Origin: an uncultured Eubacteriales bacterium
GTDB taxonomy: Bacteria > Bacillota > Clostridia > Peptostreptococcales > Anaerovoracaceae
DNA: 64,000 nucleotides
Reading direction: 5' to 3'
NCBI GenBank assembly: GCA_902773665.1
Contig: CACYFF010000007.1
Location: 1 to 64,000 of the forward strand
In this document: positions 11,806-46,053 of the stretch, piece by piece
Layout of the letters: each line of letters begins with the position of its first letter
How positions within the stretch are numbered: the stretch's first letter is position 1
Made by a program: the position numbers and the translations under genes
Notes under the pieces: model-generated
Database searches by the model: none
What the model was told of the DNA's origin: nothing
What the model saw: only the letters and a program-made list of their open reading frames with translations

Positions 11806-14289
11806 TCACAGCGACAGCCCCAGTTCCTTGGCGGCCTCTTCGCGCATCTTATATTTCAGTATTTTCCCCGCGGCGTTCATGGGGAAGGAGTCCACAAAGC
11901 GGATATACTTGGGCACTTTGTGCCGTGCGAGCCGCTCGACGCAGTAAGCGCGGATCTCGGGTTCGGATGCCTCCTGGCCTTCCTTTAGTATAATACAGGC
12001 CATGGCTTCTTCGCCGTATTTTTCGTCGGGCACGCCGATCACCTGCACGTCCTGCACCGCCGGATGGGTGTAGAGGAATTCCTCGATCTCCCTGGGGTAC
12101 AGGTTTTCGCCGCCGCGGATGATCATATCCTTCAGGCGGCCGGTGATCCGGTAATTGCCGTTTTCATCCTTGCAGGCCAGGTCGCCGGAGTGGAGCCAGC
12201 CGTCTGCATCGATGGTCTCTCTCGTGGCCTCGGGCATCTTGTAGTAGCCCTTCATCTGGTTGTAGCCCTTGGCGCAGAATTCGCCGTTGACCCCGGGAGG
12301 AACCTCGTTCCCCGTCTCCGGGTCGATGACCTTGCAGAGCACGTGGGGGAAACTGTAGCCTACGGTCTCCGTGCGCACGTCCAGGGGATCGGTCCAGGCG
12401 GACATGGTGTTGCCCGGGGCGGTCTCGGTCTGGCCGTATACGCTCACGATGCCCCTCATGTTCATCTCGTCGGGCTGAGCGGCGCGCTTCATCAGTTCCG
12501 GCGGGCAGCCGGACCCTGCCATGATGCCCGTCCGCATGAAGGAAAAGTCCGTCTTGCGGTAGTCGGGATGGTTGAACATGGCGATGAACATCGTCGGCAC
12601 GCCGTTGAAGCAGGTGATCTTCTCCTGGTTGATGCAGGCGAGGGACGATTTGGCCGAGAAATAGGGCAGCGGGCACATGGTCGCTCCGTGGGTCATGGAA
12701 CTGGTCATGCTCAGCACCATGCCGAAGCAGTGGAACATGGGCACCTGGATCATCATGCGGTCCGCGGTACTTAAGCCCATGCGGTCGCCGATGCACTTGC
12801 CGTTGTTGACGACGTTGTAATGGGTCAGCATGACGCCCTTGGGGAAGCCCGTCGTGCCGGAGGTGTACTGCATGTTGCACACATCGTCGGGGCGCACGAG
12901 GGAGGCCAGCCGCGCGGTCTCCTCGGGGGGCACCATATCCGCCCGCGCCATCGCCTCGTCGAAGGTGAGGCAGCCGTTTTGCTTAAAGCCGCAGGTGATG
13001 ACGTTGCGCAGGAACGGGAGACGCTTGCAGTGCAGGGGCTCGCCGGACTTGCTGCCGGCGATCTCCGGGCAGAGCTCGTTGATGATGGCGGCGTAGTCGC
13101 TGTCCAGAGCCCGGTCGATCATGACGAGGGTGTGGGTGTCCGACTGGCGCAGCAGGTATTCCGCCTCATGGATCTTGTAGGCCGTGTTCATGGTGACCAG
13201 CACAGCGCCGATCCGGCAGCAGGCCCAGAACGTGATGTACCAGGCAGGGATATTCGTGCACCAGACCGTCACTTTGTAACCCGGCTTTACACCCAGGGAT
13301 ACCAGTGCCCGGGCAAAGCGGTCCACGTCGTCCCGGAATTCCTCGTAGGTCCGGGTGTAGTCCAGCGTGGTGTATTTAAAGCAGTATTGGTCGGGGAATT
13401 CTTCGGCCATGCGGTCCAGCACCTGGGGGAAGGTGAGGTTGATGAGGTCGTCCTTCTTCCAGACATAGCGGCCCGTGCCGTCGTGGTTGTAATACAGGCC
13501 CTTCTCCCGTCTCTGGGAGCGCTCGAAGCGGTGCATGTAGTTGACGAAGTGGGGGAAGATGATCTCCCGGTCCGTCAGCTCTTCCAGCCAGCGGGGCTTC
13601 CACTCCAGGGAGACGAAGCCGCTGTAGTCCACGCTCTGCAGCGCGTCCATCACCTCTTCCACCGGGAAGTTTCCTTCGCCGATGAGCTCGTAATCGTCCG
13701 CGCTGATGCTGTCGTGAAGGTGCACATGCTTTACGTAGGCGCCCAGGTTGGTGATGGTCTGCGCAGGGCTTTCGCCGCAGCTGCGGTAGGGGAAGTGAAC
13801 GTCCCAGAGGACCGCCAGCTGATCGCAGGCAAAATCGTCCAGCAGGGCCCGGAGCTTCTCCGTGGAGGAGAACAGGCCCCGCGTCTTGATGAGGATCGTA
13901 ACCCCCAGCTCTTCCGCCAGGGGGATGAGCCCGGAGAGCGCCTTTACCGCGTTCTCCGCCGTCTCGCCGGAGGCCCACACGGCGCAGTAGGGCGCCCGCA
14001 GGTCGTTGCACAGGCGCATCTCTTCCTTCAGCGATTCCAGACCTTCTTCATCGATGGTGGAGATGTCCTTTGCGCTGTCGAAGCAGGGAATGCTGAGGTG
14101 CTTTTCCCGCAGCTCCCGGTAGGTGGAAGGCACGGAATAGATATGGAAGGGGCCGCTGCGGTCGGTCAGTTCCGGCGCAGCGGAGACGTGGTAGAGCTCC
14201 ACGCCCTGGAACCCCATTTCTTCTGCAGTATCGAGGATCTCCTGCCAGGTCAGATCCTGCCAGCCTCTTGTGGAAAAGGAAAGCTTCAT
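11806..14289 (-). CDS. Fusion: TIM-barrel (xylose isomerase-like) domain + AMP-forming acyl-CoA synthetase
   Basis: An 827-residue two-domain protein. Residues ~1-260 match the sugar-phosphate isomerase/epimerase (EndoIV-like) TIM barrel: FQGVELYHV, LWDVHFPYR, VKHVHLHDS, FVSLEW. Its usual metal ligands look lost: the Glu-x-His of the ETHG motif is LIKTRG (Lys135, Arg137) and the His of WDxHH is Phe166. Residues ~275-827 are a complete ANL acyl-CoA ligase with the P-loop YTSGTTGFPKG (475-485), GQTETAP, LHSGDLA, the hinge GRLKDMIIRGGENLYP and the adenylation Lys in GKILKYKMRE. It would activate a carboxylic acid to its CoA thioester. Its ATG overlaps the upstream stop by 4 bases. The barrel may be regulatory or structural. 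Confidence 0.88.
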   Translation of the reverse strand: MKLSFSTRGWQDLTWQEILDTAEEMGFQGVELYHVSAAPELTDRSGPFHIYSVPSTYRELREKHLSIPCFDSAKDISTIDEEGLESLKEEMRLCNDLRAPYCAVWASGETAENAVKALSGLIPLAEELGVTILIKTRGLFSSTEKLRALLDDFACDQLAVLWDVHFPYRSCGESPAQTITNLGAYVKHVHLHDSISADDYELIGEGNFPVEEVMDALQSVDYSGFVSLEWKPRWLEELTDREIIFPHFVNYMHRFERSQRREKGLYYNHDGTGRYVWKKDDLINLTFPQVLDRMAEEFPDQYCFKYTTLDYTRTYEEFRDDVDRFARALVSLGVKPGYKVTVWCTNIPAWYITFWACCRIGAVLVTMNTAYKIHEAEYLLRQSDTHTLVMIDRALDSDYAAIINELCPEIAGSKSGEPLHCKRLPFLRNVITCGFKQNGCLTFDEAMARADMVPPEETARLASLVRPDDVCNMQYTSGTTGFPKGVMLTHYNVVNNGKCIGDRMGLSTADRMMIQVPMFHCFGMVLSMTSSMTHGATMCPLPYFSAKSSLACINQEKITCFNGVPTMFIAMFNHPDYRKTDFSFMRTGIMAGSGCPPELMKRAAQPDEMNMRGIVSVYGQTETAPGNTMSAWTDPLDVRTETVGYSFPHVLCKVIDPETGNEVPPGVNGEFCAKGYNQMKGYYKMPEATRETIDADGWLHSGDLACKDENGNYRITGRLKDMIIRGGENLYPREIEEFLYTHPAVQDVQVIGVPDEKYGEEAMACIILKEGQEASEPEIRAYCVERLARHKVPKYIRFVDSFPMNAAGKILKYKMREEAAKELGLSL

Positions 14290-15698
14290 AACGTACCCTC
14301 CTCATAGATGATCTTGTTGACGGCGCTCACGTACGCCCGGATGGAGGAACCGATGATGTCGGTGGAAATGCCCCGGCCGGAGTACAGTCTGCCGTCCGTG
14401 CTGCGGAGCCGGACGATCGTTTCGCCCATGGCTTCCCGGCCTTCCGTAACGGCCCGCACCTGCAGGTCGTCCAAGTCGTAGTGGTGACCCACGATCTGCT
14501 CGATGGCCAGGAACGAAGCGTCGACGGGACCGTCGCCCACCGCCAGGCCGTCCAGGATCTGTCCGTCCTTTTCCATGCGGATGTGGCTCGTCGCCGTAAT
14601 GACGTTGCCGGAGTTGATGACGTAATCCTGCACTTTATAGGTCTGCGGCACCTGGAGCGCGGCGGATGCGACGATGGCGTCCAGCTCCTTGATGCCGACG
14701 GATTCTTTCTTCTCTGCGATGCGCATGAAGGCGTTGTAGACGTTCACCGCGTCTTCTTCGCCCAGGTCGTATCCGATCCCGGCCACGGCCTTCATCACGG
14801 CGTCCATGTCGTCGTGGACGGTGAGGACGGCGTCGGATCCATCGTGGGGCGCGGTATCGTAGGGGGTCTTGCCGTGCTTGGCTTCGCCCATGCGGCGGAT
14901 CTGGTTGATCGTGCGGCGCAGCTCCGTATCCCGGACCGGACAGGTGAGACCATGCTCGTTGCCCCGGGTCTTCAGGATGTAGACGAGTTTTTCCAGCGAG
15001 GCGGTAAAGTCGCCGCAGGCGGCGGTCTTCACTTCGTCTGCGCCTGCCAGAACGGCGGAAACGGCGCAGGCATCTGCCAGGAACAGCTCGTTGGAGATCT
15101 TAACGCCGAGACGGACGGGCTCCGGAAGGTCTTCCCGCACCGCCTTAACGGAGGCGTAGAACTCCTCCGGCAGCAGGTTGCCCGCCGTATCGCAGATGGT
15201 GACGATGGAAGCGCCTGCCTCCACCGCAGCGGCTGCGATCTTGCGCAGGAATTCCGGTTCACTGCGGCCGGCGTCTTCCGCTACGAATTCCACCTCCTTG
15301 CACACGGCCTTGGCCGCGGCGATCTGTGTCCGCACCTGTTCCAGAACGGCCGCCGGCTTCATCCGGCAGATGTATTCCATCTGAACCGTGCTCACCGGGG
15401 CGACGACCTGCAGGCGGGCCTTTCTGGCCTCCTTCAGGGCGCTCCAGGTGACCGCTGCCGAATCCTCTTCCATCAGGGAGAGGGGCGCCGCGATGACGCT
15501 GTCCCGGACGGCGCTGGCCAACGATTTGATCAAGAGGCTGTCTGTGCGCCGGTTGAAGATGGGGGCGGTCTCGATCACCGGCACCCCAACGCGGTCCAGC
15601 AGCTTCGCAAGTTCGATCTTTTCCCGGAAACTGAAGGCAATTCCTCCCGTCTCTACGGGCTGTTTCATGGTTATGTCACTGAGAAAAATCTGCCTCAT
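14286..15698 (-). CDS. LeuA-like (2-isopropylmalate synthase family) protein with altered active site and intact regulatory domain
   Basis: A 470-residue protein with the architecture of 2-isopropylmalate/citramalate synthase: HMGL-like TIM barrel (~1-270), linker, and C-terminal LeuA allosteric domain (~350-470; SGNVITATSHIRM, GDGPVDASFLAIE, GRGISTDIIGSS). The catalytic core has diverged: DTTLRDGEQ reads SDITMKQPVETGG, so the catalytic Arg is gone; the metal motif HxHND reads KISNE (200-204); and GERAGN is not recognisable. It is unlikely to condense acetyl-CoA with an oxoacid in the normal way. The start at 15698 is set by AAGGAG nine bases upstream; a longer frame runs into the T-box and is not used. 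First gene of the T-box operon. Confidence 0.82.
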   Translation of the reverse strand: MRQIFLSDITMKQPVETGGIAFSFREKIELAKLLDRVGVPVIETAPIFNRRTDSLLIKSLASAVRDSVIAAPLSLMEEDSAAVTWSALKEARKARLQVVAPVSTVQMEYICRMKPAAVLEQVRTQIAAAKAVCKEVEFVAEDAGRSEPEFLRKIAAAAVEAGASIVTICDTAGNLLPEEFYASVKAVREDLPEPVRLGVKISNELFLADACAVSAVLAGADEVKTAACGDFTASLEKLVYILKTRGNEHGLTCPVRDTELRRTINQIRRMGEAKHGKTPYDTAPHDGSDAVLTVHDDMDAVMKAVAGIGYDLGEEDAVNVYNAFMRIAEKKESVGIKELDAIVASAALQVPQTYKVQDYVINSGNVITATSHIRMEKDGQILDGLAVGDGPVDASFLAIEQIVGHHYDLDDLQVRAVTEGREAMGETIVRLRSTDGRLYSGRGISTDIIGSSIRAYVSAVNKIIYEEGTL

Positions 15699-15731: not shown

Positions 15732-15769
15732 AAAAAATCCCTGAAGCCGTAAACTAACAGCTTCAGGGA
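15732..15769 (-). terminator. T-box attenuator terminator
   Basis: TCCCTGAAGC and GCTTCAGGGA (15760-15769 and 15738-15747) form a 10-bp stem followed, on the minus strand, by six T's. It lies between the T-box sequence and the LeuA-like start and would compete with the antiterminator. Confidence 0.85.
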
Positions 15770-16012
15770 CGAAATTGCACATTCCGCGGTACCACCCTGA
15801 TTCCTCATAGAAAAGAGGCACCTCTCGGGCTCCATCAAGCCCATGGCCGGTAACGGGGCCTACCGGGTCCAACTACTTGCAGCCGTTCGCGGGACCTGCT
15901 CTGGAGTCAGATGTCTGTGACCCTCGGTACCGGCTCGCACCACCCGCCGGCTCTCTGAAACGCTCCTGTCACGACAATTCTCCGTCGTCGCATTTGTGTT
16001 CTTTAAACAAAA
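15738..16012 (-). promoter_or_regulatory. T-box riboswitch leader, probably tRNA-Leu (CUG specifier)
   Basis: The minus strand carries the T-box core AGGGTGGTACCGCGG (about 15784-15799), which pairs with the tRNA acceptor end, preceded by a Stem I with CAGAGAGCCGG...GGTG...AGCCGG as in classical leaders. In Stem I the triplet CTG is followed by A and then nine bases ending in AGC, the spacing found in known specifier loops such as glyQS. That makes leucine (CUG) the likely specifier; the overlapping ATC (Ile) is a weaker reading. A terminator follows. Uncharged tRNA-Leu should switch on the whole downstream operon. Confidence 0.88.
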
Positions 16013-16050: not shown

Positions 16051-16103
16051 GGGGGACGCGCAAAGAAAAAAAGGAGTGAAAAATCCGCTCCGGGCCTGTA
16101 GAA

Positions 16104-16371
16104 GTGGAGACCACGGACCGCAGAAGGACGATCGGCGGGCTTACGGACTCCATGAAGAAGGTCGCGCGGCTCGTGCGCAACGAAGAGCCAGCGGTTTGCG
16201 GACTCCGTGCAGGATATCGAACAGGTGCGCCGCAACCTGGCCACCCTGGACATGAACGATGTGGCGGAAGGCTTCCGCAAGAGCCAGATCGAGGAGATCA
16301 AACAAAAACAGGCGGAAGGACCCGTCAAGATCAATGAAGAACCGAACGTGATCAATGGGCTGAACCTATAG
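16104..16371 (+). pseudogene. Frameshifted small gene, unknown family
   Basis: Two overlapping plus-strand frames read like one protein split by a frameshift near 16185. The first (GTG at 16104) gives VETTDRRRTIGGLTDSMKK and ARLVRNEE; the second, open to the TAG at 16369-16371, contains VQDIEQVRRNLATLDMNDVA and RKSQIEEIKQKQ. Both parts are hydrophilic and helical, unlike chance translations of this GC-rich DNA. No family recognised. It ends two bases from the convergent reverse transcriptase stop. Sequencing error or true decay cannot be separated. Confidence 0.4.
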
Positions 16372-16372
16372 C

Positions 16373-17569
16373 TTAGTTCATTTTATAATACGCGTTCACC
16401 AGGCTGCGGTAACTCAGCTTCTTCAGATCTTCGTAGCGCACGTCGTAGCGGCCTTTGGTGCGCTTGCCGGAGACAAGAAAGCGCAGGCAGTCCTGGGCGT
16501 AGGCGTCGATCTCCTGCAAGCTGTCCGCCGTGTTGATGACAGAAAAGAACCACCAGCTCCAGGACAGGTCGCTGCCCTCGGGGCTTTCCAACAACTTGCG
16601 GTTGAACACCCGGATAAAGGCCGCCGCGGCCTTTTCGCCGGACAAACCGTTTCTCTGCCGCCAGCGCTGCAGGGCTCTCGCCTTGCGGCGCATTTTTTGT
16701 TTGAGTTTTTTGACCGTGGCAGGAGCGATGTCGATCGCCCCATCGCGGTACGAAAACCCCAGGAACGTCCAGCCGGTCTCGGGCGTGTAGAAGTCCTCCT
16801 TGGACGGGTTCACGGAGAGGCCCTTTTCTGCCAGAAACGCGCGGATCTGCGCCGCATGCCCTTCTGTCTCCTCCCGGGTCTCCCCGAAGGCGATGATATC
16901 GTCGGAATAGCGGGCGTAGAGGACGCCTTTTTCTTCGAACAGACGGTCTAGATCGCTCAGGTAGAGGTTGGCTAGAAATGCGGACTGGGGCGTTCCTGCC
17001 ATGATGCCCTTCTGTTCTTCGACGGGGCTGCCGTTTTCCAGGACGAAAGGCTCCTCCAGCAGACGGCGCAAGAAGGCGAACAATGACGGGTCATCCAGCC
17101 CGATTGTTTTGCCGAGCATCGGTATTAGACGATGGACAGGCACCGTATTAAAATAGTTGCTCACGTCCACTTTATAGGCGTATTTTTGGCGGATGCCGGG
17201 GGTGCGGGCGAGGCGGCGGAGCGCATCCTTCGCGGTGACCCCGGGACGAAAGGAATACAGATTACCGGCAAACAGACCGTCGTACTTTCTCAGCAGCAGC
17301 CAGGTAAGCAGCTTGCAAACCGTGTTCTCCGGCTCGGGATAGATGTAGACCGTGCGCTTTTTCTGGGACCCCATCTTACTGAGCACGACCTTTTTGGGCA
17401 GCGGAAAGCGCTCCCCGGACGCGATCCGCTCGCAGACGGGGAGATATCGCCTATCGTCGATAAACGACCGAAGGGATTCCGCAGTGCCCTTCGGACAAAT
17501 CAGCGAGGTCTTGTATTCATAGAAGACTTCCCAGCTTTCAGGGCTGGAAAGCTGCTGCAGCAGGGTCAT
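16373..17569 (-). CDS. Stand-alone reverse transcriptase
   Basis: A 398-residue RNA-directed DNA polymerase. Visible palm and finger motifs: KVDVSNYFNTV (first catalytic Asp135), GIMAGTPQSAFLANLYLSDLD (189-208), YARYSDDIIAFG (YxDD at 221-224) and WTFLGFSY. The C-terminus (~280-398) is basic and has no maturase X, HNH or Cas1 domain, so it is not an ordinary group II intron protein. The retron signatures NAxxH and VTG are not evident, so it may belong to one of the unclassified (UG/DRT-like) RT groups. GGAGG precedes the ATG. The 170-base gap upstream folds into a structured RNA with complementary ends, as in RT-ncRNA systems. A defence role is inference. Confidence 0.85.
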   Translation of the reverse strand: MTLLQQLSSPESWEVFYEYKTSLICPKGTAESLRSFIDDRRYLPVCERIASGERFPLPKKVVLSKMGSQKKRTVYIYPEPENTVCKLLTWLLLRKYDGLFAGNLYSFRPGVTAKDALRRLARTPGIRQKYAYKVDVSNYFNTVPVHRLIPMLGKTIGLDDPSLFAFLRRLLEEPFVLENGSPVEEQKGIMAGTPQSAFLANLYLSDLDRLFEEKGVLYARYSDDIIAFGETREETEGHAAQIRAFLAEKGLSVNPSKEDFYTPETGWTFLGFSYRDGAIDIAPATVKKLKQKMRRKARALQRWRQRNGLSGEKAAAAFIRVFNRKLLESPEGSDLSWSWWFFSVINTADSLQEIDAYAQDCLRFLVSGKRTKGRYDVRYEDLKKLSYRSLVNAYYKMN

Positions 17570-17590
17570 GCAAACCTCCGCAAAAAAGAG

Positions 17591-17729
17591 AAAAAACAGA
17601 AAGAGAAGGCATTAAAGCCCGGGAAATCCCGGGATGTACAGGGCCGTACAGGAACCGGCTGCCTGCGAAGCGCTGAATTGGTTCCTGCCGGGTCCGCCGC
17701 AGGCGCAAGGGCGTTCTCTCTCTGTTTTT
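17591..17729 (-). ncRNA. Candidate structured RNA upstream of the reverse transcriptase
   Basis: On the minus strand the 5' arm AAAAACAGAGAGAGAACGC (17729-17711) can pair with the 3' arm at 17610-17592 over about 19 bases, with one G-U and one C-C mismatch. Between them lie hairpins in series: CGCC/GGCG, CAGGAACC/GGTTCCTG (8 bp perfect), TGTAC/GTACA and CCCGGG/CCCGGG. The layout, arm1-hairpins-arm2-RBS-RT on one strand, is that of a retron msr-msd or a DRT template RNA. The branching G or the template cannot be assigned from sequence alone. Confidence 0.5.
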
Positions 17730-17740
17730 ATCGGGTCTTG

Positions 17741-18313
17741 TTAGCCCTTCAGGGCTTTTTCGATGCGGGAGACCACATAGGAACGGGCGTTCCACCAGCC
17801 CTCGTGATCCTTGTAGAAGCGCAGGTAAGGCACGCCTTCCTTTGCGCACTTCTCCCTTAGTTTGACGGCGGAACTGTTGTCCGGAACGAGCTCCACCACC
17901 AGCTTCTGTGCAACGCCGTCGTAGAAACGGTAGATCGTGGACCGGCCGAAGCCACCCCATCCTGCCTCCTTGTTTACGATGCAGGCGGGGAAATCCTCCG
18001 CGAAGATCTTCTCGAAGTACGCGGCGGGCGCCAGGCCGCTGTTATACATGTTCTCTTCCGCCGGCATGTCTGGACCCCACCAGCCGCTGGCCTCTGCTGC
18101 GGCCTTTTCCGCCTGCTCTTCCTTGATGGCGGTCACCGCTTCTTCCTTCGCCGCAGCGAACGATTCCTTTACGCTGTCCAGATCCAGCCCGGCCTTTTCA
18201 GCCTCGGTCTTGACCGCCGCAGCCGCATCCGTTACGGTCTTCTTCAGTTCATCCAGATTCAGGTCGGGCACCTTGTCTCCGACCTCTTTTAAAAGTTTAT
18301 CGAAAAGTCCCAT
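17741..18313 (-). CDS. Hypothetical protein upstream of the RT unit
   Basis: A 190-residue soluble protein; the ATG at 18313 (MGLFDKLLKEVG) is preferred over one three codons earlier because it lies at a normal distance from AGGAGG. Residues ~1-85 form a charged, Ala/Glu/Lys-rich helical region, probably coiled coil. Residues ~95-190 are a globular domain with AYFEKIFAEDFP, KLVVELVPDNSSAVKLREKC and a conserved-looking tail VPYLRFYKDHEGWWNARSYV. I know no function for this domain. The gene lies on the same strand 12 bases before the structured RNA, so it might be transcribed with the RT, but nothing in it marks it as an effector. Confidence 0.7.
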   Translation of the reverse strand: MGLFDKLLKEVGDKVPDLNLDELKKTVTDAAAAVKTEAEKAGLDLDSVKESFAAAKEEAVTAIKEEQAEKAAAEASGWWGPDMPAEENMYNSGLAPAAYFEKIFAEDFPACIVNKEAGWGGFGRSTIYRFYDGVAQKLVVELVPDNSSAVKLREKCAKEGVPYLRFYKDHEGWWNARSYVVSRIEKALKG

Positions 18314-18442
18314 AGGTATCACCCTCCTCTTATGTCAAATACTATCACAAATGGGTGTATGCTGAAAGCAGAAACAGAACATTCCTGCCGCGCCTGACGT
18401 TTCTATTTGCTTTTTCACCGGATCTGTGATATCGTAAGGGGC

Positions 18443-18484
18443 CGTGAGTTCGAAACCATCCTCACGTAAAACAAAACTAAGGAG
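18443..18484 (+). promoter_or_regulatory. preQ1-I riboswitch
   Basis: A short stem CGTGAG/CTCACG with a loop beginning TTC, followed by an A-rich tail AAAACAAAACTAAGGAG. This is the compact H-type pseudoknot of class-I preQ1 aptamers, in which the tail pairs into the loop. The ribosome site GGAG (18481-18484) is part of the tail, so control of translation start of queT is expected. Confidence 0.8.
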
Positions 18485-18493
18485 TAACTGAAT

Positions 18494-18988
18494 ATGAAAC
18501 TAAGCAAGAAAACCCTGTTTTTGGTGCAGGCTGCTCTGATCGCCGCGATCTACGTGGTGCTCACCGTGGTCTTCGCCCCCTTCTCGTTCGGCGAGGTGCA
18601 GGTCCGCATCGCGGAAGCCCTCACGATCCTGCCGGTATTTCTGCCGGCAGCGGTCCCCGGCCTGTTCGTCGGCTGCTTTCTGGGCAACATGCTGGGCGGC
18701 GCCGTGCTCCCCGATATCATCTTCGGAAGCCTGGCCACCCTCATCGGCGCCCTCGGCACCCGGGCGCTCAGAAAGGCTCACCCCTTCCTGGCACCCATTC
18801 CGCCCATCGCCGCGAACACCGTCATCGTGCCCTTCGTGCTGAAGTACGCGTACGCCGTGGATCTGCCCATCCCCTTCATGATGCTCACCGTAGGCATCGG
18901 CGAGGTCGTCTCCTGCGGCATCTTCGGCCTGGTGCTCTACTATGCGCTCAACGGCCGCCGCGCACAGGTATTCGGCGAGGCCGAATAG
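18494..18988 (+). CDS. queT: QueT-family queuosine precursor transporter
   Basis: A 164-residue integral membrane protein, five to six hydrophobic segments, of the QueT family, the substrate-binding S component of an ECF-type transporter for queuosine precursors such as preQ0/preQ1. Typical features are VQAALIAAIYVVLT near the N-terminus, VQVRIAEALTILPVF and GLFVGCFLGNMLGG in the middle, and conserved Ala/Gly helices. The ECF energising subunits are not in the window. The preQ1 riboswitch directly overlaps its ribosome site, which supports the assignment and implies repression when precursor is plentiful. Single-gene unit closed by a strong terminator. Confidence 0.88.
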   Translation: MKLSKKTLFLVQAALIAAIYVVLTVVFAPFSFGEVQVRIAEALTILPVFLPAAVPGLFVGCFLGNMLGGAVLPDIIFGSLATLIGALGTRALRKAHPFLAPIPPIAANTVIVPFVLKYAYAVDLPIPFMMLTVGIGEVVSCGIFGLVLYYALNGRRAQVFGEAE

Positions 18989-19021
18989 GGACTGTGACCC
19001 GGGTCAAAAAACACGAAGCAT

Positions 19022-26267: not shown

Positions 26268-27266
26268 TTATTCGAATCGATACTGGGCGAATTCCGCGCA
26301 CAGCTTGGCGCAGGCCGTCATGTCGTCTGCGGAGACGATCTCCTGGGGGCAGTGAACGAACTTGCAGGGGATGGAGATACCGCTGGAGGGCACGCCGTCC
26401 ATGGTCAGATGCATGGCGCCGGCATCGGTGCCGCCAGCGTTGAGCACATCCATCTGATAGGGGATCTTCTTCTTTTCGGCCAGCTCCACCAGGATCTTAT
26501 TGACCGCGGGGCTGCACAGGACGGAGGAGTCCTTTACCTTGATGGCAGCGCCCTTGCCGGTGGAAGAGCTGCAGCCATGGCGGCTGCACGGAACATCGTC
26601 AAAGCCCGTTACATCCACGGCGATGCCGTAGTCCGGCGCGACGCCGAAAGCAGCGGTCTTTGCACCGCGCAGGCCCACTTCTTCCTGGGTCGTGAACACG
26701 AAGTACAGATCGTTGACGCTCTTTTTGAGCAATTCCATGGCCATCAGCAGCACGGCGCAGCCGCTGCGGTTGTCCGTGTAGGGGCTGCAGATCATGTTGT
26801 TAGCCAGCATGGCGGAACGGGTATCGTAGATGCACATGTCGCTGGGGCGGACGTATTTCTTCGCATCTTCCGCATCCTTGGCGCCGATGTCGATGTACAG
26901 TTCTTCCAGCTTTACCTTGCCTTCGTCTTCCACGTCGTTGCAGTGGACGACGCCCTGCAGACCGTTTTCGAAGCGCACGGGGGTGCCGATCAGCTCGGTA
27001 ACGGGCAGGCCGCCGATCTTGCCGAAGCGCAGCTGGCCTCCCTTTTCGATGTGGGTCACCATCAGGCCCAGGGAATCCATGTGGGCCGCGAACATGATCT
27101 TCTTGCCGGGGCCCTTCTTGTGGCAGATGAGGTTGCCCATCACGTCGGTCGCGATCTCGTCGCAGTAAGGCTTCGCCATCTCCGCGATGACCGCCGCCAC
27201 CGCTTCCTCCCGTCCGCTGGGACCGAAGGCCGCATTCATTTTATCTAAAGTCTTGAGAATATCCAT
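26268..27266 (-). CDS. M42-family metallo-aminopeptidase (third in tandem)
   Basis: A 332-residue M42 peptidase (TET/glutamyl-aminopeptidase/FrvX group), a dodecameric cytoplasmic enzyme that trims peptides from the N-terminus with two metals. Motifs: FAAHMDSLGLMVT (His, Asp), the bridging Asp in YTDNRSGCAVLL, the catalytic pair in TTQEEVGLRGA, and a late His in CKFVHCP. It starts one base after the second M42 gene ends. All expected ligands look present. Confidence 0.88.
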   Translation of the reverse strand: MDILKTLDKMNAAFGPSGREEAVAAVIAEMAKPYCDEIATDVMGNLICHKKGPGKKIMFAAHMDSLGLMVTHIEKGGQLRFGKIGGLPVTELIGTPVRFENGLQGVVHCNDVEDEGKVKLEELYIDIGAKDAEDAKKYVRPSDMCIYDTRSAMLANNMICSPYTDNRSGCAVLLMAMELLKKSVNDLYFVFTTQEEVGLRGAKTAAFGVAPDYGIAVDVTGFDDVPCSRHGCSSSTGKGAAIKVKDSSVLCSPAVNKILVELAEKKKIPYQMDVLNAGGTDAGAMHLTMDGVPSSGISIPCKFVHCPQEIVSADDMTACAKLCAEFAQYRFE

Positions 27267-27267
27267 A

Positions 27268-28305
27268 TTACTTCACCTTTCCCGCCGCGATCGCGTTGAT
27301 AAACAGCTCTGCCAGTTTCAGTCCGTTCTCCATATCGGTCTTGTCCGCCACGGTGGACGCTGCGTGCAGCATGCGCACCGGCGTGGAGATGTTGGCGACG
27401 CGGACGCCTGCGCGGCTCCGCTGGATGACCGCTGCATCCGTGCCGCCTGCGATATAGTTCTTGATCTGCCAGGGGATGCCGGCCTCGTCCGCCAGATCCC
27501 GCAGGCACTCGAACAGCTTGCGGTCGTAGATCGTGCCGGTATCGACGCAGCCGATGACGCAGCCGCCGCCTACCAGGGTCACCTTTTTGGCATCGTCCAC
27601 GCCGGGCATGTCCGCAGAGGTCGTTCCCTCCAGGATGAGGGCGATGTCCGGGGCCAGGTTGAAGGCTGCCGCCTTCGCGCCGCGCAGACCCACTTCCTCC
27701 TGGACGGTGAACACGAAGGTGACGTCCATGGGCAGGTCTTTTTCCATGAGTTTGATCATCTGCGTGCAGCCGATGCGGTCGTCGATGGCCTTGGCCTTGA
27801 TGCGCCGTTTGCCTTCGCCGAAGCGTACGAAGTCGGAGTCGAAGACCACGGGATCGCCCAGTTTGACGAGCTTCGCCGCCTCTTCCTTGCTCTCCGCGCC
27901 GATGTCGATGTACATCTGGGCGATGGAGGGCGTCTTTTTCTCCTCTTCGGGGGTCATCAGATGGTAGGCCTTGAGGCCCGTGACCCCGGGCACATGGTTC
28001 GCACCGATGAGCACCCGTCTTCCGAGGGCCACCCTGGGGTTGATGCCGCCCGCTTCCTGGAAGCGCAGCACGCCGGTGTCCTCGATCTTGGTGATGAGGA
28101 AGCCCACTTCGTCCATGTGCGCCGCGATCATCAGCTTGGGCGCGTTATGCTTCTTACCTTTTTTGAACACCACCAGGTTGCCCATGGTGTCCACGTGCAT
28201 CTCATCCGCATAGGGACGGCACTTTTCCGCGATCAGATGGCGGATGGGAGCCTCGAACCCGGAGACGCCGTCTGCTGCCGTAAGTTCCTTCAACAGTTTT
28301 AGCAT
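27268..28305 (-). CDS. M42-family metallo-aminopeptidase (second in tandem)
   Basis: A 345-residue M42 enzyme with IAAHMDEVGFLIT, IDDRIGCTQMI, TVQEEVGLRGA and the late His in VRMLHA. Where the family usually has a metal Asp after the peptidase core it reads LILEGTTSAD, so a Glu may be the ligand, as in some M42 members. It overlaps the first M42 gene by 7 bases, which implies coupled translation and possibly mixed complexes. Confidence 0.88.
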   Translation of the reverse strand: MLKLLKELTAADGVSGFEAPIRHLIAEKCRPYADEMHVDTMGNLVVFKKGKKHNAPKLMIAAHMDEVGFLITKIEDTGVLRFQEAGGINPRVALGRRVLIGANHVPGVTGLKAYHLMTPEEEKKTPSIAQMYIDIGAESKEEAAKLVKLGDPVVFDSDFVRFGEGKRRIKAKAIDDRIGCTQMIKLMEKDLPMDVTFVFTVQEEVGLRGAKAAAFNLAPDIALILEGTTSADMPGVDDAKKVTLVGGGCVIGCVDTGTIYDRKLFECLRDLADEAGIPWQIKNYIAGGTDAAVIQRSRAGVRVANISTPVRMLHAASTVADKTDMENGLKLAELFINAIAAGKVK

Positions 28306-29339
28306 TCGTACACCTCCTTGCAGGGTTCTGCGATCGCCGCTGCCATGAGTTCACCCAGCCACTGGGTGTCGCGCACGTCCATCACTTCGATGGGAGTGTG
28401 CATGTAGCGCATGGGCAGCGAGATGAGGGACATGTTGAAGCCCTTGCTGTTGATCTGCATGGGCCAGGCATCCGTGTGGGTGTTGCCGCCGGACGCGGAG
28501 ATCTGATAGGGGATGCGGTGCTTTTCCGCCAACTCGATCAGATGCTGCGTAATGTGGGGCTGGCAGTTGGCGCCTGCGGAGAGGGTCGGACCGCCGCCTA
28601 CGACCACGTCCTTGTTGACGGGGCCGCCGTCGGTGCTCTTCGCCTGGCAGACATCCACGACGATGCAGTAATCCGGATCCAGGGCATAGCTGCCGGTGAG
28701 CGCGCCGGTGGAATCGGTCTCTTCGACGGTGGCGCCCATGATGTAGACGTCGCAGTCCAGATCTCTTCCCTGCAGCAGCTCCATGGCGTACATGCAGGCT
28801 GCGAAGCAGCTGCGGTCGTCCAGAGAGGTGCCGCAATAAAGGTTCGGTCCCAAACTATAATTATCCTTGCGGAAGGAGATGGGCGTGCCGATGGGCACCA
28901 GTTTCTCCGCCGCTTTCTGGCTGTATCCGATATCGATGCGCAGGTCTTCGATGGGGATGGTCTTCTCCTTGTCGGCCTCGCTCATGACGTGGGGCGGCAG
29001 CGCCGCAACGACGCCGAAAAGGGGCGGTTCGGTAAGGATCGTCAGCTCCCGGTCGGGCAGCATGCGGGGGTCGACCCCGCCGATCTTCGTAAAGCGGAGA
29101 AATCCGTCTTCGATGCCGGTCACCATCAGGCCGATCTCGTCCAGATGCGCCGTAATCAGCACTTTTCTGGCGTTCTTCTTGCCGCAGCGCTTTACGCCGA
29201 CGAGATTGCCCATCTTGTCGATCCACGTTTCGTCGCACAGCGGTTCGATGAGTTCCCGGGCTTTCTCGACCACCTTGGTCTCGAAGCCGGAGGGACCGCA
29301 CTCGCTGCACAGCGCCTTCATGGTCTCTCGTAAATCCAT
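28299..29339 (-). CDS. M42-family metallo-peptidase (first in tandem, most divergent)
   Basis: A 346-residue M42 homologue: ITAHLDEIGLMVTG, LDDRSCFAACM, and SLPMRYMHTPIEVMD with the late His. The catalytic EEVGLRGA is replaced by VEETDSTGA: the Glu pair stays but the surrounding loop differs, suggesting altered specificity. It begins 12 bases after the nucleotidyltransferase gene. Having three paralogues in a row points to subunits of one particle or to division of peptide substrates. Confidence 0.86.
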   Translation of the reverse strand: MDLRETMKALCSECGPSGFETKVVEKARELIEPLCDETWIDKMGNLVGVKRCGKKNARKVLITAHLDEIGLMVTGIEDGFLRFTKIGGVDPRMLPDRELTILTEPPLFGVVAALPPHVMSEADKEKTIPIEDLRIDIGYSQKAAEKLVPIGTPISFRKDNYSLGPNLYCGTSLDDRSCFAACMYAMELLQGRDLDCDVYIMGATVEETDSTGALTGSYALDPDYCIVVDVCQAKSTDGGPVNKDVVVGGGPTLSAGANCQPHITQHLIELAEKHRIPYQISASGGNTHTDAWPMQINSKGFNMSLISLPMRYMHTPIEVMDVRDTQWLGELMAAAIAEPCKEVYEC

Positions 29340-38587: not shown

Positions 38588-41095
38588 TTATTTGCCTCCC
38601 ATATCCAGAGTGATCTGTTCGGATCCGTCGTCCTTCTTGCCCTTGGCAGGCTCATCCCCGCCTTCTTCCTCGCGGACCGCCTTGGCCAGCGCCACGATCT
38701 CGGATTCCTCCTCGACCTTCATGATGCGCACGCCTTGGGTCGTCCTGCCGAGTCTGGAGACGTCGCCCGCCTCGATGCGGATGATGATGCCGTCGGAGTT
38801 GATGAGGAAGATCTCGTCGTCGTCCTGTACCGTCATGGCGCCGACCAGGTAGCCGGTCTTGTCGAACTTGCCCTTGTCGTAGGTTAGCAGGCCCTTGCCG
38901 CCTCTGGCCTGGACCTTGTATTCCTTCACGGGGGTGCGCTTGCCGTAGCCCTTTTCGGTGACCACCAGCAGCTCCTCGCCCTTTCTGGCCAGCTCCATGG
39001 AGACGACTTCGTCGTCCTTATCCAGCAGGATGGCTCTTACGCCGCCTGCGGCTCTGCCCATCACGCGGACGTCGTCCTCGCTGAAAGAGATGCACTTGCC
39101 CTTCTTCGTGATGATGATGACGTTGGCGTCGCCCTTGGTCTCCTTGATGGAGATGAGGTCGTCGCCGTCGTGCAGCTTGATGGCGATGAGGCCCGCCTTG
39201 CGGTTCGTGTCGAACTCGGACAGCTGCATCTTCTTGATGTTGCCCAGTCTCGTGCAGGCGATGAGATAGCGGTCTTCGGAGAATTCCTTCACCGGCAGCA
39301 CCGCCTGGATGCGTTCTCTCTGCAGCAGGTTGAGGAAGTTGACCGCCGGCGTGCCCTTGGCCTGTCTGTTGGCCTCGGGGATCTCGTACGCCTTGATCTT
39401 ATACGCCTTGCCCATGCTGGTGAAGAACATCAGATTGTCGTGGGTGGACGTGGTGATGAGGTGCTTCACGAAGTCGTTCTCTCTGGTGGTGAGGCCCGTA
39501 ATGCCCTTGCCGCCCCGCTTCTGCGTGCGGTAGGTATCCTCGGAGACTCTCTTCAGGTAGCCCAGGTGAGAAACGGTGATGACCACGTTTTCCTCTTCGA
39601 TGAGCTCGGATTCGTCCACTTCCTCCTCGTCCGCGATGATCTCGGTGCGTCTGTCGTCGCCCCACTTGTTCTTGATCTCGGTGAGTTCGTCTTTGACCAC
39701 GCCCATCAGCAGCTTTTCGTCCGCCAGCAGGCTCTTGTAGTAGGCGATCTTCTTTAAGAGTTCCTGATATTCCGCCTCGATCTTGTCGCGCTCCAGACCC
39801 TGCAATCTCTTCAGCTGCATGTCCAGGATGGCCTGGGCCTGGATCTGGGACAGACCGAACTTCTTCATCAGCTGTTCTCTGGCGTCATCGTAGCTTTCGC
39901 GGATCGTCTTGATGATCTCGTCGATGTGGTCCAGCGCGATGCGGTAACCCTCCAAAATATGGGCTCTCGCCTCGGCCTTGGCCAAGTCGAACTTCGTCCG
40001 TCTGGTGAGGACTTCCTTCTGATGCTTGATGTATTCGGTTAAGATGTCGTGGATGTTCAGCAGCTGGGGCCGGCCGTTTACCAGCGCTATCATGATGATG
40101 GAAACGTTGGTCTCCAGCTCCGTGTGCTTGTACAACCGGTTGAGCATCACCTTCGGGTTGACGTCCTTCTTCAGCTCGATGACCACCCGCACTTCGCCCT
40201 TGGAGGACTCGTCGCGGATGTCGCGGATGCCGTCCAGCTTCTTGTCGCGCACGAGCTCCGCGATGTGGGAGATCATGGCGGCCTTGTTGACTCCATAGGG
40301 GATCTCGTGGAAGATGATGGAGGTGATGCCTCTCGCGCCTTCCTCGATTACGCCCTTCGCTCTGAGCTTTACCTTGCCCTGGCCGGTGCGGTAGGCTTCC
40401 TTGATGGCGGTCTTTCCCACGATGGTGGCACCCGTCGGGAAGTCCGGTCCCTTGATGATCTTGATGAGGGTCTCCACGTCCGCATTGGGGTCGTCGATCA
40501 GTTTGATGGTGCCGTCGATGACCTCGCGGAGGTTATGGGGCGGAATGGCGGTGGCCATACCGACTGCGATGCCGTTGGCGCCGTTGACCAGCAGATTGGG
40601 GAATCTGGCGGGCAGCACCACGGGTTCTTTTTCTTCGCCGTCGTAGTTGTCGACGAAGTCTACGGTGTCCTTGTCGATGTCCCGGAGCATCTCCAGGGCA
40701 AAGGGAGCCATGCGGGCTTCGGTATAACGGGAAGCGGCCGCGCCGTCGCCGTCCATGGAACCGAAGTTGCCGTGGCCGTCCACGAGGCGGTAGCGCATGT
40801 TCCAGGGCTGGGCCAGGCGCACCATGGCGTCGTAGATGGAGGCGTCACCGTGAGGGTGGTATTTACCCATGACTTCGCCCACGATACGGGCGGATTTTTT
40901 ATGGGGTTTGTCCGGCGTGATGCCCAGGGCATCCAGGCCGTACAGGATGCGGCGGTGAACCGGCTTAAGTCCGTCCCGCACGTCGGGAAGCGCTCTTGCA
41001 ACGATTACGCTCATGGAGTAATCGATGTAGGAGGTCTTCATTTCTTCGTATATCTCGTGCTGTAAGATCTTTCTGTCTTCGGTAAGATCCGGCAT
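38588..41095 (-). CDS. gyrA: DNA gyrase subunit A
   Basis: An 835-residue GyrA that cuts and rejoins DNA in the gyrase complex. [22 protein letters not shown] is at the N-terminus; the catalytic Tyr lies in [11 protein letters not shown] (~120-130). The C-terminal domain has the GyrA-box QKRGGKGI (~530) that wraps DNA, and further RGGKG-like blades; the tail is acidic and Gly/Asp-rich. Quinolone-site Ser/Asp region reads [12 protein letters not shown] (Ala where many bacteria have Ser at the position after Asp). It follows gyrB by 18 bases. Confidence 0.97.
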
Positions 41096-41113
41096 GTTCT
41101 CTCCTCCTTCCTC

Positions 41114-43442
<2,329 letters not shown>

Positions 43443-44789
43443 ATGACAAAAACAGAGCTGAAAGAAAAATGGAACGTCGTGCTGGATCTGCTCTACACCA
43501 GCATGGAACGGTTAAAAGTGGATACGTTCTTCCGCCCGCTGACCCCGGTCAAACTGAGCGAAAAGAAGGAGACCATCTACCTGAAGACCGCCGGATCCAA
43601 AAGCAGCGTCTATCAAAATAGCATCAACAATCACAAGGAGTTTCTTTCCGAAGCGCTGATCAAGGCCTTCGGGAAAGAATATAAGTTGGAGATCGTCGAC
43701 GCGGAGCCGCCCGATGATGATGACGAAAGCGGCAGCCCGATCCCGGAAGAAAAGGATTACGGGTTCAACCCCAGATATACCTTCGAAAGCTTTGTGCAGG
43801 GTCCCAACAACCAGCTGGCGCTGGCCGCCTGCCTCGCCATCGCGGATAAGGGATACGTAAAGGAGTACAACCCCCTCTTCCTTTACAGCGGTCCCGGTCT
43901 GGGGAAAACCCACCTGATGCACGCTGTGGGACAGTATATTATTAAGCATTTCCCGAAAAAGCGCGTCATGTACGTCTCCTCGGAGGCTTTCACCAACGAG
44001 CTGGTGACGTCCATTCAGGAAAAGAGCACCGACAAATTCCGCAACAAGTACAGAAAAGTGGACGTTCTGCTGTTCGACGACGTGCAGTTTATCTCGGGAA
44101 AGGCCGCGACCCAGGAGGAGCTGTTCCATACGTTCAACGATCTGTACAACGCGAGAAAGCAGATCATATTTACGTCGGATAAGCCTCCCCAGGAACTGGT
44201 GGGTATCCCGGACAGGCTAACAAGCCGTTTCGGACAGGGGCTTTCCGTGGATATCAATCCGCCGGAATACGAAACGAGGTTTGCCATCCTGAAAAATCTG
44301 GCCATCCTCTCCAACGTGGAAGTAACGCCGGAGATCGAAGATATGCTGGATCTGATCGCCCAGAACGTAACGACGAACATCCGCGACCTGGAAGGCGCCT
44401 TTACGAGAGTGCATGCTTCGTCACAGCTGCTGGGGTCACCGATGAACAAAGACCTGGCAAAGATGGTCCTTACGGATATCTTTAAGAATACGAAGACGAA
44501 AGAGATAACGCCGGATATCATCAAGAAAGAAGTATCCAAATACTTCGGCGTAAAGGTGTCGGACATGGAAAGCGCCAACCGTTCCAAGGACGTTGCATTT
44601 CCAAGGCAGATCGCCATCTATCTCATCCGGGAGCACACGAACTATTCCCTGCCCCAGATGGGAAAGCTGTTCGGCGGCAGAGACCATACGACGATACGGC
44701 ACAGCTACGAAAAAATAGCGGAAGAGATCAAAAAAAATAAGGATCTGCAGGAGACGATCGAGACGATCAACCATCAGATCGAAGGATGA
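43443..44789 (+). CDS. dnaA: Chromosomal replication initiator DnaA
   Basis: A 448-residue AAA+ initiator. Domain I to ~80, a short acidic linker (DDDDESGSPIPEE), then domain III with NPRYTFESFVQGPNNQLA, Walker A GPGLGKTHL, Walker B VDVLLFDDVQF and sensor segments; domain IV carries the DNA-binding signature GGRDHTTIRHS near the C-terminus. It opens oriC; boxes lie on both sides of the gene. The first of the rightward dnaA-dnaN-recF cluster. Confidence 0.98.
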   Translation: MTKTELKEKWNVVLDLLYTSMERLKVDTFFRPLTPVKLSEKKETIYLKTAGSKSSVYQNSINNHKEFLSEALIKAFGKEYKLEIVDAEPPDDDDESGSPIPEEKDYGFNPRYTFESFVQGPNNQLALAACLAIADKGYVKEYNPLFLYSGPGLGKTHLMHAVGQYIIKHFPKKRVMYVSSEAFTNELVTSIQEKSTDKFRNKYRKVDVLLFDDVQFISGKAATQEELFHTFNDLYNARKQIIFTSDKPPQELVGIPDRLTSRFGQGLSVDINPPEYETRFAILKNLAILSNVEVTPEIEDMLDLIAQNVTTNIRDLEGAFTRVHASSQLLGSPMNKDLAKMVLTDIFKNTKTKEITPDIIKKEVSKYFGVKVSDMESANRSKDVAFPRQIAIYLIREHTNYSLPQMGKLFGGRDHTTIRHSYEKIAEEIKKNKDLQETIETINHQIEG

Positions 44790-44893
44790 TTTTCCACAGG
44801 ATGTGTAAAACAGGGACATACTTTTCCACAGGTTTTCCATTCCGCGTCCGCTTTTCTTTCAACGGATGAGAACGGTTATCCCCCTTTTCCACA
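44790..44893 (+). other. oriC: DnaA boxes between dnaA and dnaN (oriC, right)
   Basis: Three relaxed boxes TTTTCCACA at 44790-44798, 44822-44830 and 44885-44893, with a TTATCCCC-like one between. Together with the left cluster this makes a bipartite origin with dnaA in the middle, as known in Bacillus subtilis. Confidence 0.7.
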
Positions 44894-44946
44894 GCCTCTA
44901 TTACTAAAGCTACTAAAAATACTGGAAGAATATAAGGAGAGCTCGC

Positions 44947-46053
44947 ATGAAATTCACATGTTCTCAGGGCGCCCTGACGAGAGCGCTGAATACGGTATCC
45001 AAAGCAGTTTCCATACGTACGACGATCCCCATTCTCAAAGGTATCCTTCTTACTGTCAAAGGAAATGAACTTACCGTTACGGCATCGGATCTGGACCTTT
45101 CCATCGAAACGAAGATGGAAGTACAGGCTGCGGAAGAAGGAAGCGCCGTCGTTTCCTCCAAACTGTTCTCCGAGATCGTCCGTAAACTGCCAAACGCCGT
45201 TCTGCAGATCGAAGAAGCGGACGGAAAGATGGAGATCAGCTGCCTCGGGTCACACTTTTCCATCGTATCTCTGCCTGCCGACGAATTTCCCGCGATCGGC
45301 ATGGTGAACCAGCTGAGCAAGATCGGCGTAAAGAAAGACAGCTTAAAGGATCTCATCAAAAAGACCACATTTGCCGCTTCCATCGACGAAAAGAAGGGTA
45401 TTTTAGTGGGTTGTCTGCTGAAATTTGCGGAAGGAAAACTCGAGATGGCAGCTCTGGACGGATTCCGTCTGGCCGTTGCCAACTGCGACATGCCTTCTGA
45501 GGAGGAAAAGAGCGTCGTGATCCCGGCCAGGATCCTGGCGGAGATCCAGAAGATCCTGATGGAAAGTTCCGAAGAGGAAGAAGTCTCCCTTGTGCTGGAC
45601 GACAAAAAGGCGGAGATCATTACGAAAGAGACCCGCATCGTCGCAAGACTGCTGGAAGGCGAATTCATCAAATATAACGACATCATTCCCAAGACGTACA
45701 AGACGCGTTGCCTTGTGAACCGCGAAGAGCTGCTTTCCGGCATCGAAAGAGCATCCCTGCTCTCCAAAGAAGGCAAGAACAACCTCATCAAGATGGATAT
45801 CGCAAACGGAAAGATCGAGATCACTTCCAGAAGCGAAGAAGGTAATTCCAAGGAATCCATCGTCTGCGAGAGCGAAGGCGACGAACTCGTGATCGGCTTC
45901 AACTCCAAATATGTTTCCGACGCCTTAAAGGCCGTGGGTGACGAAGAGATCGTCATGGAGATGTCCTCTCCCGTCAGTCCCTGCCTCATCAAGCCGGTGG
46001 AGGGAGATTCGTTTACATACCTGGTGCTGCCGGTCCGCATTTCCGCGAATTAA
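44947..46053 (+). CDS. dnaN: DNA polymerase III sliding clamp (beta subunit)
   Basis: A 368-residue beta clamp with three similar domains: MKFTCSQGALTRALNTVSKAV, VRKLPN..., and the C-terminal YVLMPVRI-type end, here FTYLVLPVRISAN. It forms the ring that holds polymerase on DNA. AAGGAG precedes the ATG. Its TAA shares one base with the recF ATG; the small S4-domain gene often found between dnaN and recF is absent. Confidence 0.97.
   Translation: MKFTCSQGALTRALNTVSKAVSIRTTIPILKGILLTVKGNELTVTASDLDLSIETKMEVQAAEEGSAVVSSKLFSEIVRKLPNAVLQIEEADGKMEISCLGSHFSIVSLPADEFPAIGMVNQLSKIGVKKDSLKDLIKKTTFAASIDEKKGILVGCLLKFAEGKLEMAALDGFRLAVANCDMPSEEEKSVVIPARILAEIQKILMESSEEEEVSLVLDDKKAEIITKETRIVARLLEGEFIKYNDIIPKTYKTRCLVNREELLSGIERASLLSKEGKNNLIKMDIANGKIEITSRSEEGNSKESIVCESEGDELVIGFNSKYVSDALKAVGDEEIVMEMSSPVSPCLIKPVEGDSFTYLVLPVRISAN

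What the first reader, a model, noticed from the sequence alone, without database searches (positions are those of the whole stretch)
16373..17740. Reverse transcriptase with an upstream RNA bounded by 19-base complementary arms: retron- or DRT-like unit
The 171-base gap before the RT holds arm1, at least four hairpins and arm2, ending just before the RT's ribosome site, the order of retron msr-msd-RT. But the RT lacks clear retron signatures (NAxxH, VTG) and has GTPQSAFLANLYL and YSDD instead. It could be a new RT-ncRNA class. No obvious effector lies downstream; the upstream 190-residue protein is the only candidate partner.
Basis: partly seen in the sequence, partly recalled or inferred. 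Interest (0 to 1): 0.8.

Follow-up and report, generated by a model that had tools for sequence, protein, structure and literature searches.

The report
UG26 reverse transcriptase with guide RNA
This is a bacterial enzyme that copies RNA into DNA, sitting next to a conserved folded RNA that it most likely uses as a built-in template, much like known anti-virus systems and telomerase; enzyme and RNA are both catalogued families, but what this pair makes has, as far as I could find, not been shown.

Summary
The 171-base gap encodes a real structured RNA whose arms, pseudoknot and hairpins covary strongly. It is not a retron and not a new class. The RT is UG26 (PADLOC E 2e-168), the RNA is Rfam RF03026 "RT-5" (91.9 bits, cut-off 45.7), and the upstream protein is the listed UG-associated family RTasCOG2852. 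New here: (1) RNA and RT co-occur in 79 of 80 carriers among 115 genomes of one family, yet in 24 they lie 1.2-9.5 kb apart on the same strand, so the RNA acts in trans; (2) the RNA has a covarying pseudoknot and four small hairpins inside the arms, like DRT10/DRT9 RNAs; (3) the unpaired junction between the last hairpin and the 3' arm, where DRT9 and DRT10 keep their templates, carries direct repeats (A-B-A') more often than chance, the sign of telomerase-like repeat addition; support is moderate, and in the window's own RNA the repeat is short; (4) the partner has a PD-(D/E)xK-type fold without a recognisable catalytic set and is missing from about half of the loci. Best explanation: a class 2 UG system making RNA-templated, probably protein-primed tandem-repeat DNA. 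A defence role is inferred, not shown.

The parts
16373..17569 (-). UG26 reverse transcriptase, 398 aa, YSDD active site; group II-like fingers-palm-thumb fold; Tyr379 invariant in the C-terminal part
   Evidence: PADLOC RT_UG26 E 2.1e-168 over residues 1-397; AlphaFold2 mean pLDDT 93.9; PDB fold matches group II RTs, G2L4, DRT9, DRT2; Y379 in 41/41 homologues
17588..17732 (-). RT-5 non-coding RNA, about 145 nt including arms and 3' U tract
   Evidence: Rfam RF03026 17708..17604, 91.9 bits vs cut-off 45.7; found in 122 distinct sequences; ends inferred from conservation, not mapped
17714..17729 (-). arm 1 (5' strand of closing stem P1)
   Evidence: pairs with 17607..17592; 10 of 11 counted pairs change on both sides among homologues
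17592..17607 (-). arm 2 (3' strand of P1), followed by a U tract
   Evidence: sequence
17704..17713 (-). small hairpin SL1 (CGC/GCG)
   Evidence: 96.9% of cells paired
17699..17703 (-). pseudoknot 5' strand CCUGC
   Evidence: 99.5% of cells paired, all 5 pairs change on both sides
17662..17666 (-). pseudoknot 3' strand GCAGG, in the loop of hairpin P3
17641..17695 (-). helices P2a (17695-17691/17645-17641), P2 (17687-17680/17656-17649) and P3 (17671-17669/17660-17658)
   Evidence: 86.1%, 89.6% and 98.8% of cells paired, with changes on both sides in 4/5, 7/8 and 3/3 pairs
17618..17633 (-). hairpin P4, candidate template-boundary element
   Evidence: 6/6 pairs change on both sides, 74.1% of cells paired
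17608..17617 (-). unpaired P4-arm 2 junction CUUUAAUGCC: candidate reverse-transcription template (A-B-A')
   Evidence: same position as DRT10/DRT9 templates (papers); direct-repeat excess across lineages; in the window itself only 3-4 nt of repeat, not significant alone
17636..17649 (-). conserved GUAC-N6-GUAC segment; its middle pairs in P2a, so more likely structural than template
17741..18322 (-). partner protein RTasCOG2852 (conserved start probably 18313); N-terminal short helix, linker, C-terminal PD-(D/E)xK-like domain (residues ~96-193)
   Evidence: PADLOC RTasCOG2852 E 5.4e-42; AlphaFold2 pLDDT 85.8; best VIA-align matches I-Bth0305I Z 7.2, BstEII, EcoT38I, VRR_NUC

Best explanation
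The locus is a complete UG26 system: partner protein - RT-5 RNA - RT. The RNA is transcribed as a separate, closed, pseudoknotted molecule of about 145 nt (inferred from structure and from genomes where it is encoded kilobases from the RT) and binds the RT (inferred from covariation and co-occurrence). By homology with class 2 UG systems DRT9, DRT10 and DRT3a, the RT would use the unpaired junction between hairpin P4 and the 3' arm as template, with P4 setting its 5' boundary, start from a hydroxyl side chain of its own C terminus (invariant Tyr379, or the mostly conserved Tyr394/395 tail), and, where the template has the A-B-A' form, let the new DNA slip back from A to A' and add short A/T-rich repeats (for example (ATTAAATC)n in genus g66, (AGCTTTGAAAC)n in genus g479; for the window (ATTAAAGC)n or (GCATTAAAG)n). 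Shown: family membership, RNA structure, co-occurrence, excess of direct repeats at the junction. Inferred: binding, templating, priming, product. A phage-defence role, with the partner as a DNA-binding or membrane-associated effector/adapter, is the most likely purpose but is not shown.
For: UG26 and RTasCOG2852 PADLOC hits; next-best UG hits are UG27, UG17 (=DRT10), UG4, Drt9, Drt3a. RT-5 Rfam hit. Covariation of seven helices incl. pseudoknot. RNA 79/80 co-occurrence with RT, 0 RT-only, 35 genomes with neither. RNA block 17600-17800 99.5% identical to sister genome while RT, partner and adjacent QueT gene have dS ~0.27-0.32. DRT10 and DRT9 architecture and template position (PMC12632851, PMC12483538, PMC13174585). 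Junction direct repeats: >=4 nt in 46% of 50 distinct junctions vs 17% in shuffles, >=5 nt 26% vs 4%; own vs swapped halves p 0.0002, p 0.002-0.02 when swapped only within RNA clusters at distance 0.25-0.4; lineage-level Fisher p 0.01, the only one of eight RNA segments below 0.05. RT fold like DRT9/DRT2 and group II RTs; Y379 invariant 41/41.
Against: In the window's own RNA the junction repeat is only CUU..CUU or GCUUU..GCCUU and not better than shuffles (P 0.58); several lineages have only 2-3 nt. Swapping within the tightest RNA clusters gives no signal (p 0.24), so part of the excess may be shared ancestry. The junction was picked after a first candidate failed, so the p-values are not from one pre-planned test. 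No expression, RT-DNA or phage data exist here. The unit is near-universal in some genera and its neighbours are mostly ordinary genes, which is not the usual defence-island picture.
Confidence: 0.55

Rival explanations
1. UG26 with RT-5 RNA is a class 2 RT-RNA system, but the product is different: a homopolymer as in DRT9, a rolling-circle gene as in DRT2, or a single short cDNA.
For: Conserved UU(U/C)AA core in the junction recalls the DRT9 uridine template; A-B-A' support is moderate and weak in the window.
Against: Junction uridine run is only 3-4 long and followed by conserved AA; the RNA (~145 nt) is far shorter than the 280-nt DRT2 RNA; direct repeats exceed chance in several lineages.
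Confidence: 0.2
2. The template is the GUAC-N6-GUAC segment after P2, not the P4-arm 2 junction.
For: GU..GU at spacing 10 or 11 in 48 of 49 distinct loops.
Against: Its middle is the 3' strand of covarying helix P2a (86% of cells paired); it lies about 30 nt too far from the 3' end compared with DRT10; direct-repeat excess not significant against dinucleotide shuffles (p 0.35).
Confidence: 0.1
3. The system does a standing job in the host cell rather than phage defence (this concerns purpose and can be true together with the best explanation's mechanism).
For: One copy, in 79 of 115 genomes of one family, in all listed genomes of genus g479; syntenic ordinary neighbours; no close relatives in phage records, plasmids or viral contigs; few defence genes nearby.
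Against: Patchy at class level (16 of 391); two different places within the window's own genus; related RTs (DRT2, DRT3, DRT9, DRT10) are all antiviral; partner present or absent.
Confidence: 0.25
4. Retron: the RNA is an msr-msd and the RT makes branched msDNA.
Against: RT is UG26; retron RT models score far below cut-off; no retron RNA family; RNA can be kilobases from the RT.
Confidence: 0.03
5. The RNA is a cis-acting leader or attenuator of the RT gene.
For: It lies just before the RT ribosome site and ends in a U tract.
Against: In 24 genomes it is 1.2-9.5 kb from the RT with unrelated genes between; its architecture matches trans-acting class 2 ncRNAs.
Confidence: 0.04

Closest known systems
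UG26 (PADLOC RT_UG26, UG/Abi family) with Rfam RF03026 RT-5 RNA
   Same: Same RT family end to end, same RNA family at the same place, same associated protein RTasCOG2852
   Different: Nothing found; no functional study of UG26 in the paper library
DRT10 (UG17 RT + ncRNA + SLATT protein)
   Same: RT is a near UG relative; RNA of similar size with a central stem and four small hairpins; candidate template between last hairpin and 3' arm with A-B-A' repeats; an upstream partner gene in many loci
   Different: Partner is a PD-(D/E)xK-like protein, not SLATT; covarying pseudoknot; junction has a conserved UU(U/C)AA core; RNA lies between partner and RT, or kilobases away; no phage or product data
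DRT9 (UG28 RT + ncRNA)
   Same: Closest solved DRT fold (TM 0.64 by query length); template loop at similar place; C-terminal tyrosines
   Different: No poly-U tract; shorter RT; product unknown
Telomerase (TERT + separately encoded RNA)
   Same: Template with alignment repeat next to a boundary hairpin, pseudoknot, RNA encoded apart from the RT in 24 genomes
   Different: Bacterial, no telomeres; resemblance of working only, by inference
Retrons
   Same: RT preceded by RNA with closing arms
   Different: No retron RT or RNA family match

Membership tests
UG26 (UG/Abi RT family) | Full-length match to the UG26 RT profile, well above other UG families | tested here: met
   E 2.1e-168, 558 bits over 1-397 of 398; next UG family UG27 106 bits
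UG26 (UG/Abi RT family) | Associated protein RTasCOG2852 | tested here: met
   E 5.4e-42 in the adjacent gene
Rfam RF03026 RT-5 RNA | Score above curated gathering threshold, full-length | tested here: met
   91.9 vs 45.7 bits, positions 1-104 of 104
DRT10 (tandem-repeat class 2 system) | UG17 RT with SLATT protein | tested here: not met
   RT_UG17 only 97.5 bits against 558 for UG26; partner is RTasCOG2852. So not a DRT10, though it may work like one
DRT10 (tandem-repeat class 2 system) | ncRNA with central stem, four small stem-loops, template after the last one | tested here: met
   Stems covary: P1, SL1, P2/P2a, P3, P4; architecture per PMC12632851. That the junction is the template is not tested
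DRT10 (tandem-repeat class 2 system) | A-B-A' repeat in the template loop | tested here: inconclusive
   Excess across lineages (Fisher p 0.01), clear in g66, g479, L048, L050, L057; not significant in the window itself
DRT10 (tandem-repeat class 2 system) | Protein-primed tandem-repeat cDNA and phage defence | not testable with these tools
   Needs expression, cDNA sequencing and phage challenge
Retron | Retron-type RT (NAxxH, VTG) and msr-msd RNA | tested here: not met
   Motifs absent; retron_St85_RT 43.5 vs cut-off 235 bits, Retron_TIR 14.8 vs 600; no retron RNA hit
PD-(D/E)xK nuclease (partner protein) | PD-(D/E)xK core fold | tested here: inconclusive
   alpha-beta3-alpha-beta-alpha domain, confident model; top matches are mostly nucleases of this fold but Z only up to 7.2
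PD-(D/E)xK nuclease (partner protein) | Catalytic D and ExK residues | tested here: not met
   Only the Glu of LVVEL is common; no Lys two residues on; the Glu is missing in distant g479 relatives

The most novel reading that the evidence does not exclude
UG26 is a bacterial telomerase-like ribonucleoprotein: a stably kept RT with a trans-acting, pseudoknotted RNA, often encoded kilobases away as telomerase RNA is, that adds short A/T-rich tandem repeats by template slippage for a purpose other than, or besides, the known DRT modes.
Probability: 0.25. Interest if true: 0.8.

Novelty: new member of a known kind. Interest (0 to 1): 0.5.

Why it matters
UG26 is one of many catalogued but unstudied RT families in the group that gave gene-writing (DRT2), homopolymer (DRT9) and telomerase-like (DRT10) immune enzymes. 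The data here give an exact, cheap test: a predicted template, predicted repeat sequences per genus, a predicted primer residue, and genomes in which RNA and RT are naturally separate. If right, repeat addition is a general trait of class 2 UG enzymes, as the DRT10 authors suggested; if wrong, UG26 has yet another product.

Tried and rejected
Retron. New RT-RNA class. Cis leader. First template idea, GUAC-N6-GUAC: conserved but its middle pairs in P2a and its repeats do not beat dinucleotide shuffles. A GUAC/GUAC hairpin: only 26 of 49 loops keep all four pairs and it conflicts with P2a. Phage or plasmid origin: no close hit in viral contigs, phages (best 28% identity) or plasmids. Sigma-70 promoter before the RNA: none by consensus scan. 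Defence-island context: among 94 neighbours in 20 loci a few ATPase/CARF-type hits, no dominant system. Plain Foldseek on the partner gave no match below E 0.08. Papers on UG26, RF03026, COG2852-RT: none found; Mestre 2022 and Weinberg 2017 are not held, so earlier statements there about UG26 or RT-5 could not be checked.

Full report
Check of the observation. The RT gene is on the minus strand, 17569..16373 (398 codons), with the quoted motifs; the gap to the upstream ORF is 171 bases. The gap folds better than all 200 dinucleotide shuffles (z -3.41). Arms of 16 consecutive pairs enclose four small hairpins.

Identity. PADLOC names the RT RT_UG26 (E 2.1e-168, full length) and the upstream protein RTasCOG2852 (E 5.4e-42); the next-best UG families are UG27, UG17 (DRT10), UG4, Drt9 and Drt3a, three of which (UG17, Drt9, Drt3a) the DRT literature places in UG class 2. 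Rfam names the RNA RT-5, RF03026, at twice its cut-off, 17708..17604. Retron RT models score far below their cut-offs and no retron RNA family matches. The RT model (pLDDT 93.9) resembles full-length group II intron RTs, G2L4, DRT9 and DRT2.

Relatives. One scan of genome contigs gave 39 loci, nearly all from uncultured rumen and gut Clostridia; genome searches added more. No close relative was found in viral contigs, phage records or plasmids. At class level the RT is patchy (16 of 391 genomes), but in the family of G248 it is in 79 of 115 genomes and the RNA in 80, always one copy. Presence agrees almost perfectly: 79 both, 1 RNA only (G803, a draft), 0 RT only, 35 neither. In 50 genomes the RNA is within 300 bases upstream of the RT; in 24 it is 1.2-9.5 kb upstream, always on the same strand, with ordinary genes between (glycosidase-like, LytTR, DUF3021-like; names from my reading of the sequences). 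So the RNA does not need to be in the RT transcript.

RNA structure. On 85 distinct RNAs seven helices hold in 88.3% of cells; sliding partners by 1-3 columns leaves 37-48%; 36 of 41 pairs show changes on both sides; no shuffle reaches these values. The pseudoknot (CCUGC with the loop of P3) pairs in 99.5% of cells with all five pairs changed on both sides in some sequences. The shuffle control ignores relatedness, but the slid control keeps it and the difference is large. The structure was drawn on the window's own sequence, which favours it somewhat in the slid control. Between the window and sister genome G005 the block 17600-17800 is 99.5% identical although RT, partner and the adjacent QueT gene have dS near 0.3: strong purifying selection on the RNA.

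Where is the template? In DRT10 a 137-nt RNA has a central stem with four small stem-loops, and the template lies right after the last one (SL5) with an A-B-A' pattern that lets the cDNA realign (PMC12632851). The DRT3a template is placed like those of DRT9 and DRT10 (PMC13174585); in DRT9 the key uridine is U124 (PMC12483538). In RT-5 the same place is the junction P4-arm 2, about positions 113-122 of the RNA. There I find repeats of different sequence in different lineages: GAUUU-AAU-GAUUU, AAUUU-AAU-AAUUU, GGAUUU-AA-GGAUUU, CGAUUU-AA-CGAUUU, GCUUU-AAC-GCUUU, GGAUU-UAAC-GGAUU, UGUUUC-AAAGC-UGUUUC, GUUUU-AAA-GUUUU, CUGUU-AAAUU-CUGUU. Tests: 46% of 50 distinct junctions have 4 nt or more against 17% of shuffles; 26% against 4% for 5 nt or more. 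Pairing each left half with its own right half gives longer matches than with swapped halves (p 0.0002); restricting swaps to similar RNAs gives p 0.002-0.02 at distances 0.25-0.4 and nothing at 0.2, where few swaps are possible. With one junction per lineage and dinucleotide shuffles the combined p is 0.01; none of seven other RNA segments is below 0.05. These tests followed an earlier, discarded candidate, so they are not one pre-planned test. In the window's own RNA the repeat is short and not significant. I therefore call the template placement likely and the slippage mechanism plausible, not shown. The GUAC-N6-GUAC segment, my first candidate, is conserved but its middle is a covarying helix strand.

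Priming. DRT9 and DRT10 RTs start DNA on a C-terminal Tyr or Ser. In UG26, Tyr379 is the only invariant hydroxyl residue in the last 100 positions (41 of 41), and a C-terminal tail with Tyr394/Tyr395 is mostly conserved. This is a prediction.

Partner. Present in 52 of 109 loci, always on the same strand and upstream of the RNA (a few distant ones score weakly). It has a short N-terminal helix, a variable linker and a C-terminal domain of the PD-(D/E)xK kind; best structural matches are I-Bth0305I, TIP26, BstEII, EcoT38I and VRR_NUC domains, all at modest Z. The catalytic set is not recognisable, so a DNA-binding adapter is as likely as a nuclease. Loci without it show RT + RNA to be the core.

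Context. Within the window's genus the unit occupies at least two places: next to the QueT-like gene and a biosynthetic gene in G000/G005, next to a UvrD-like helicase gene in G003/G004. So it moves or is exchanged, yet is kept. Neighbours in 20 loci show no dominant defence system.

Conclusion. Known family, real RNA, function unstudied as far as the library shows. Most likely a class 2 UG/DRT system that makes RNA-templated repeat DNA; defence is probable by kinship. What is added here is the covarying pseudoknotted structure, the co-occurrence table, the naturally split RNA and RT, and a testable template and product prediction.

Noticed in passing
window 38588-47129: gyrA, gyrB, dnaA, dnaN and recF genes stand together (named from sequence by eye): the replication-origin region; the UG26 unit lies about 26 kb from dnaA.
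   Followed up: no
window 15762-15997: T-box leader (RF00230, 106 bits, minus strand) before a gene at 15683..14286 that looks like a 2-isopropylmalate-synthase-type enzyme.
   Followed up: partly
window 16060-16372: About 300 bases between the RT stop and the T-box are absent or different in sister genome G005 (L095) and look like the broken end of another gene.
   Followed up: partly
window 26268-29339: Three adjacent, related M42-like aminopeptidase genes in a row.
   Followed up: no
window 16400-19000 versus L095: RT, partner and the neighbouring QueT-like gene differ from the sister genome two to three times more at silent sites than genes further left, as if this block had been exchanged by recombination; the RNA in its middle is almost identical.
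   Followed up: partly
L019 and L032, upstream of RT: RT-5 RNAs with large extra hairpins inserted in the P2 loop, the rest of the RNA intact.
   Followed up: no
L012: A UG26 RT preceded directly by a tRNA gene, with neither RNA nor partner within the 6 kb held upstream.
   Followed up: partly
genome G803 (C3:18326-18429): The only genome of the family of G248 with the RNA but no UG26 RT match; a 130-contig draft.
   Followed up: no
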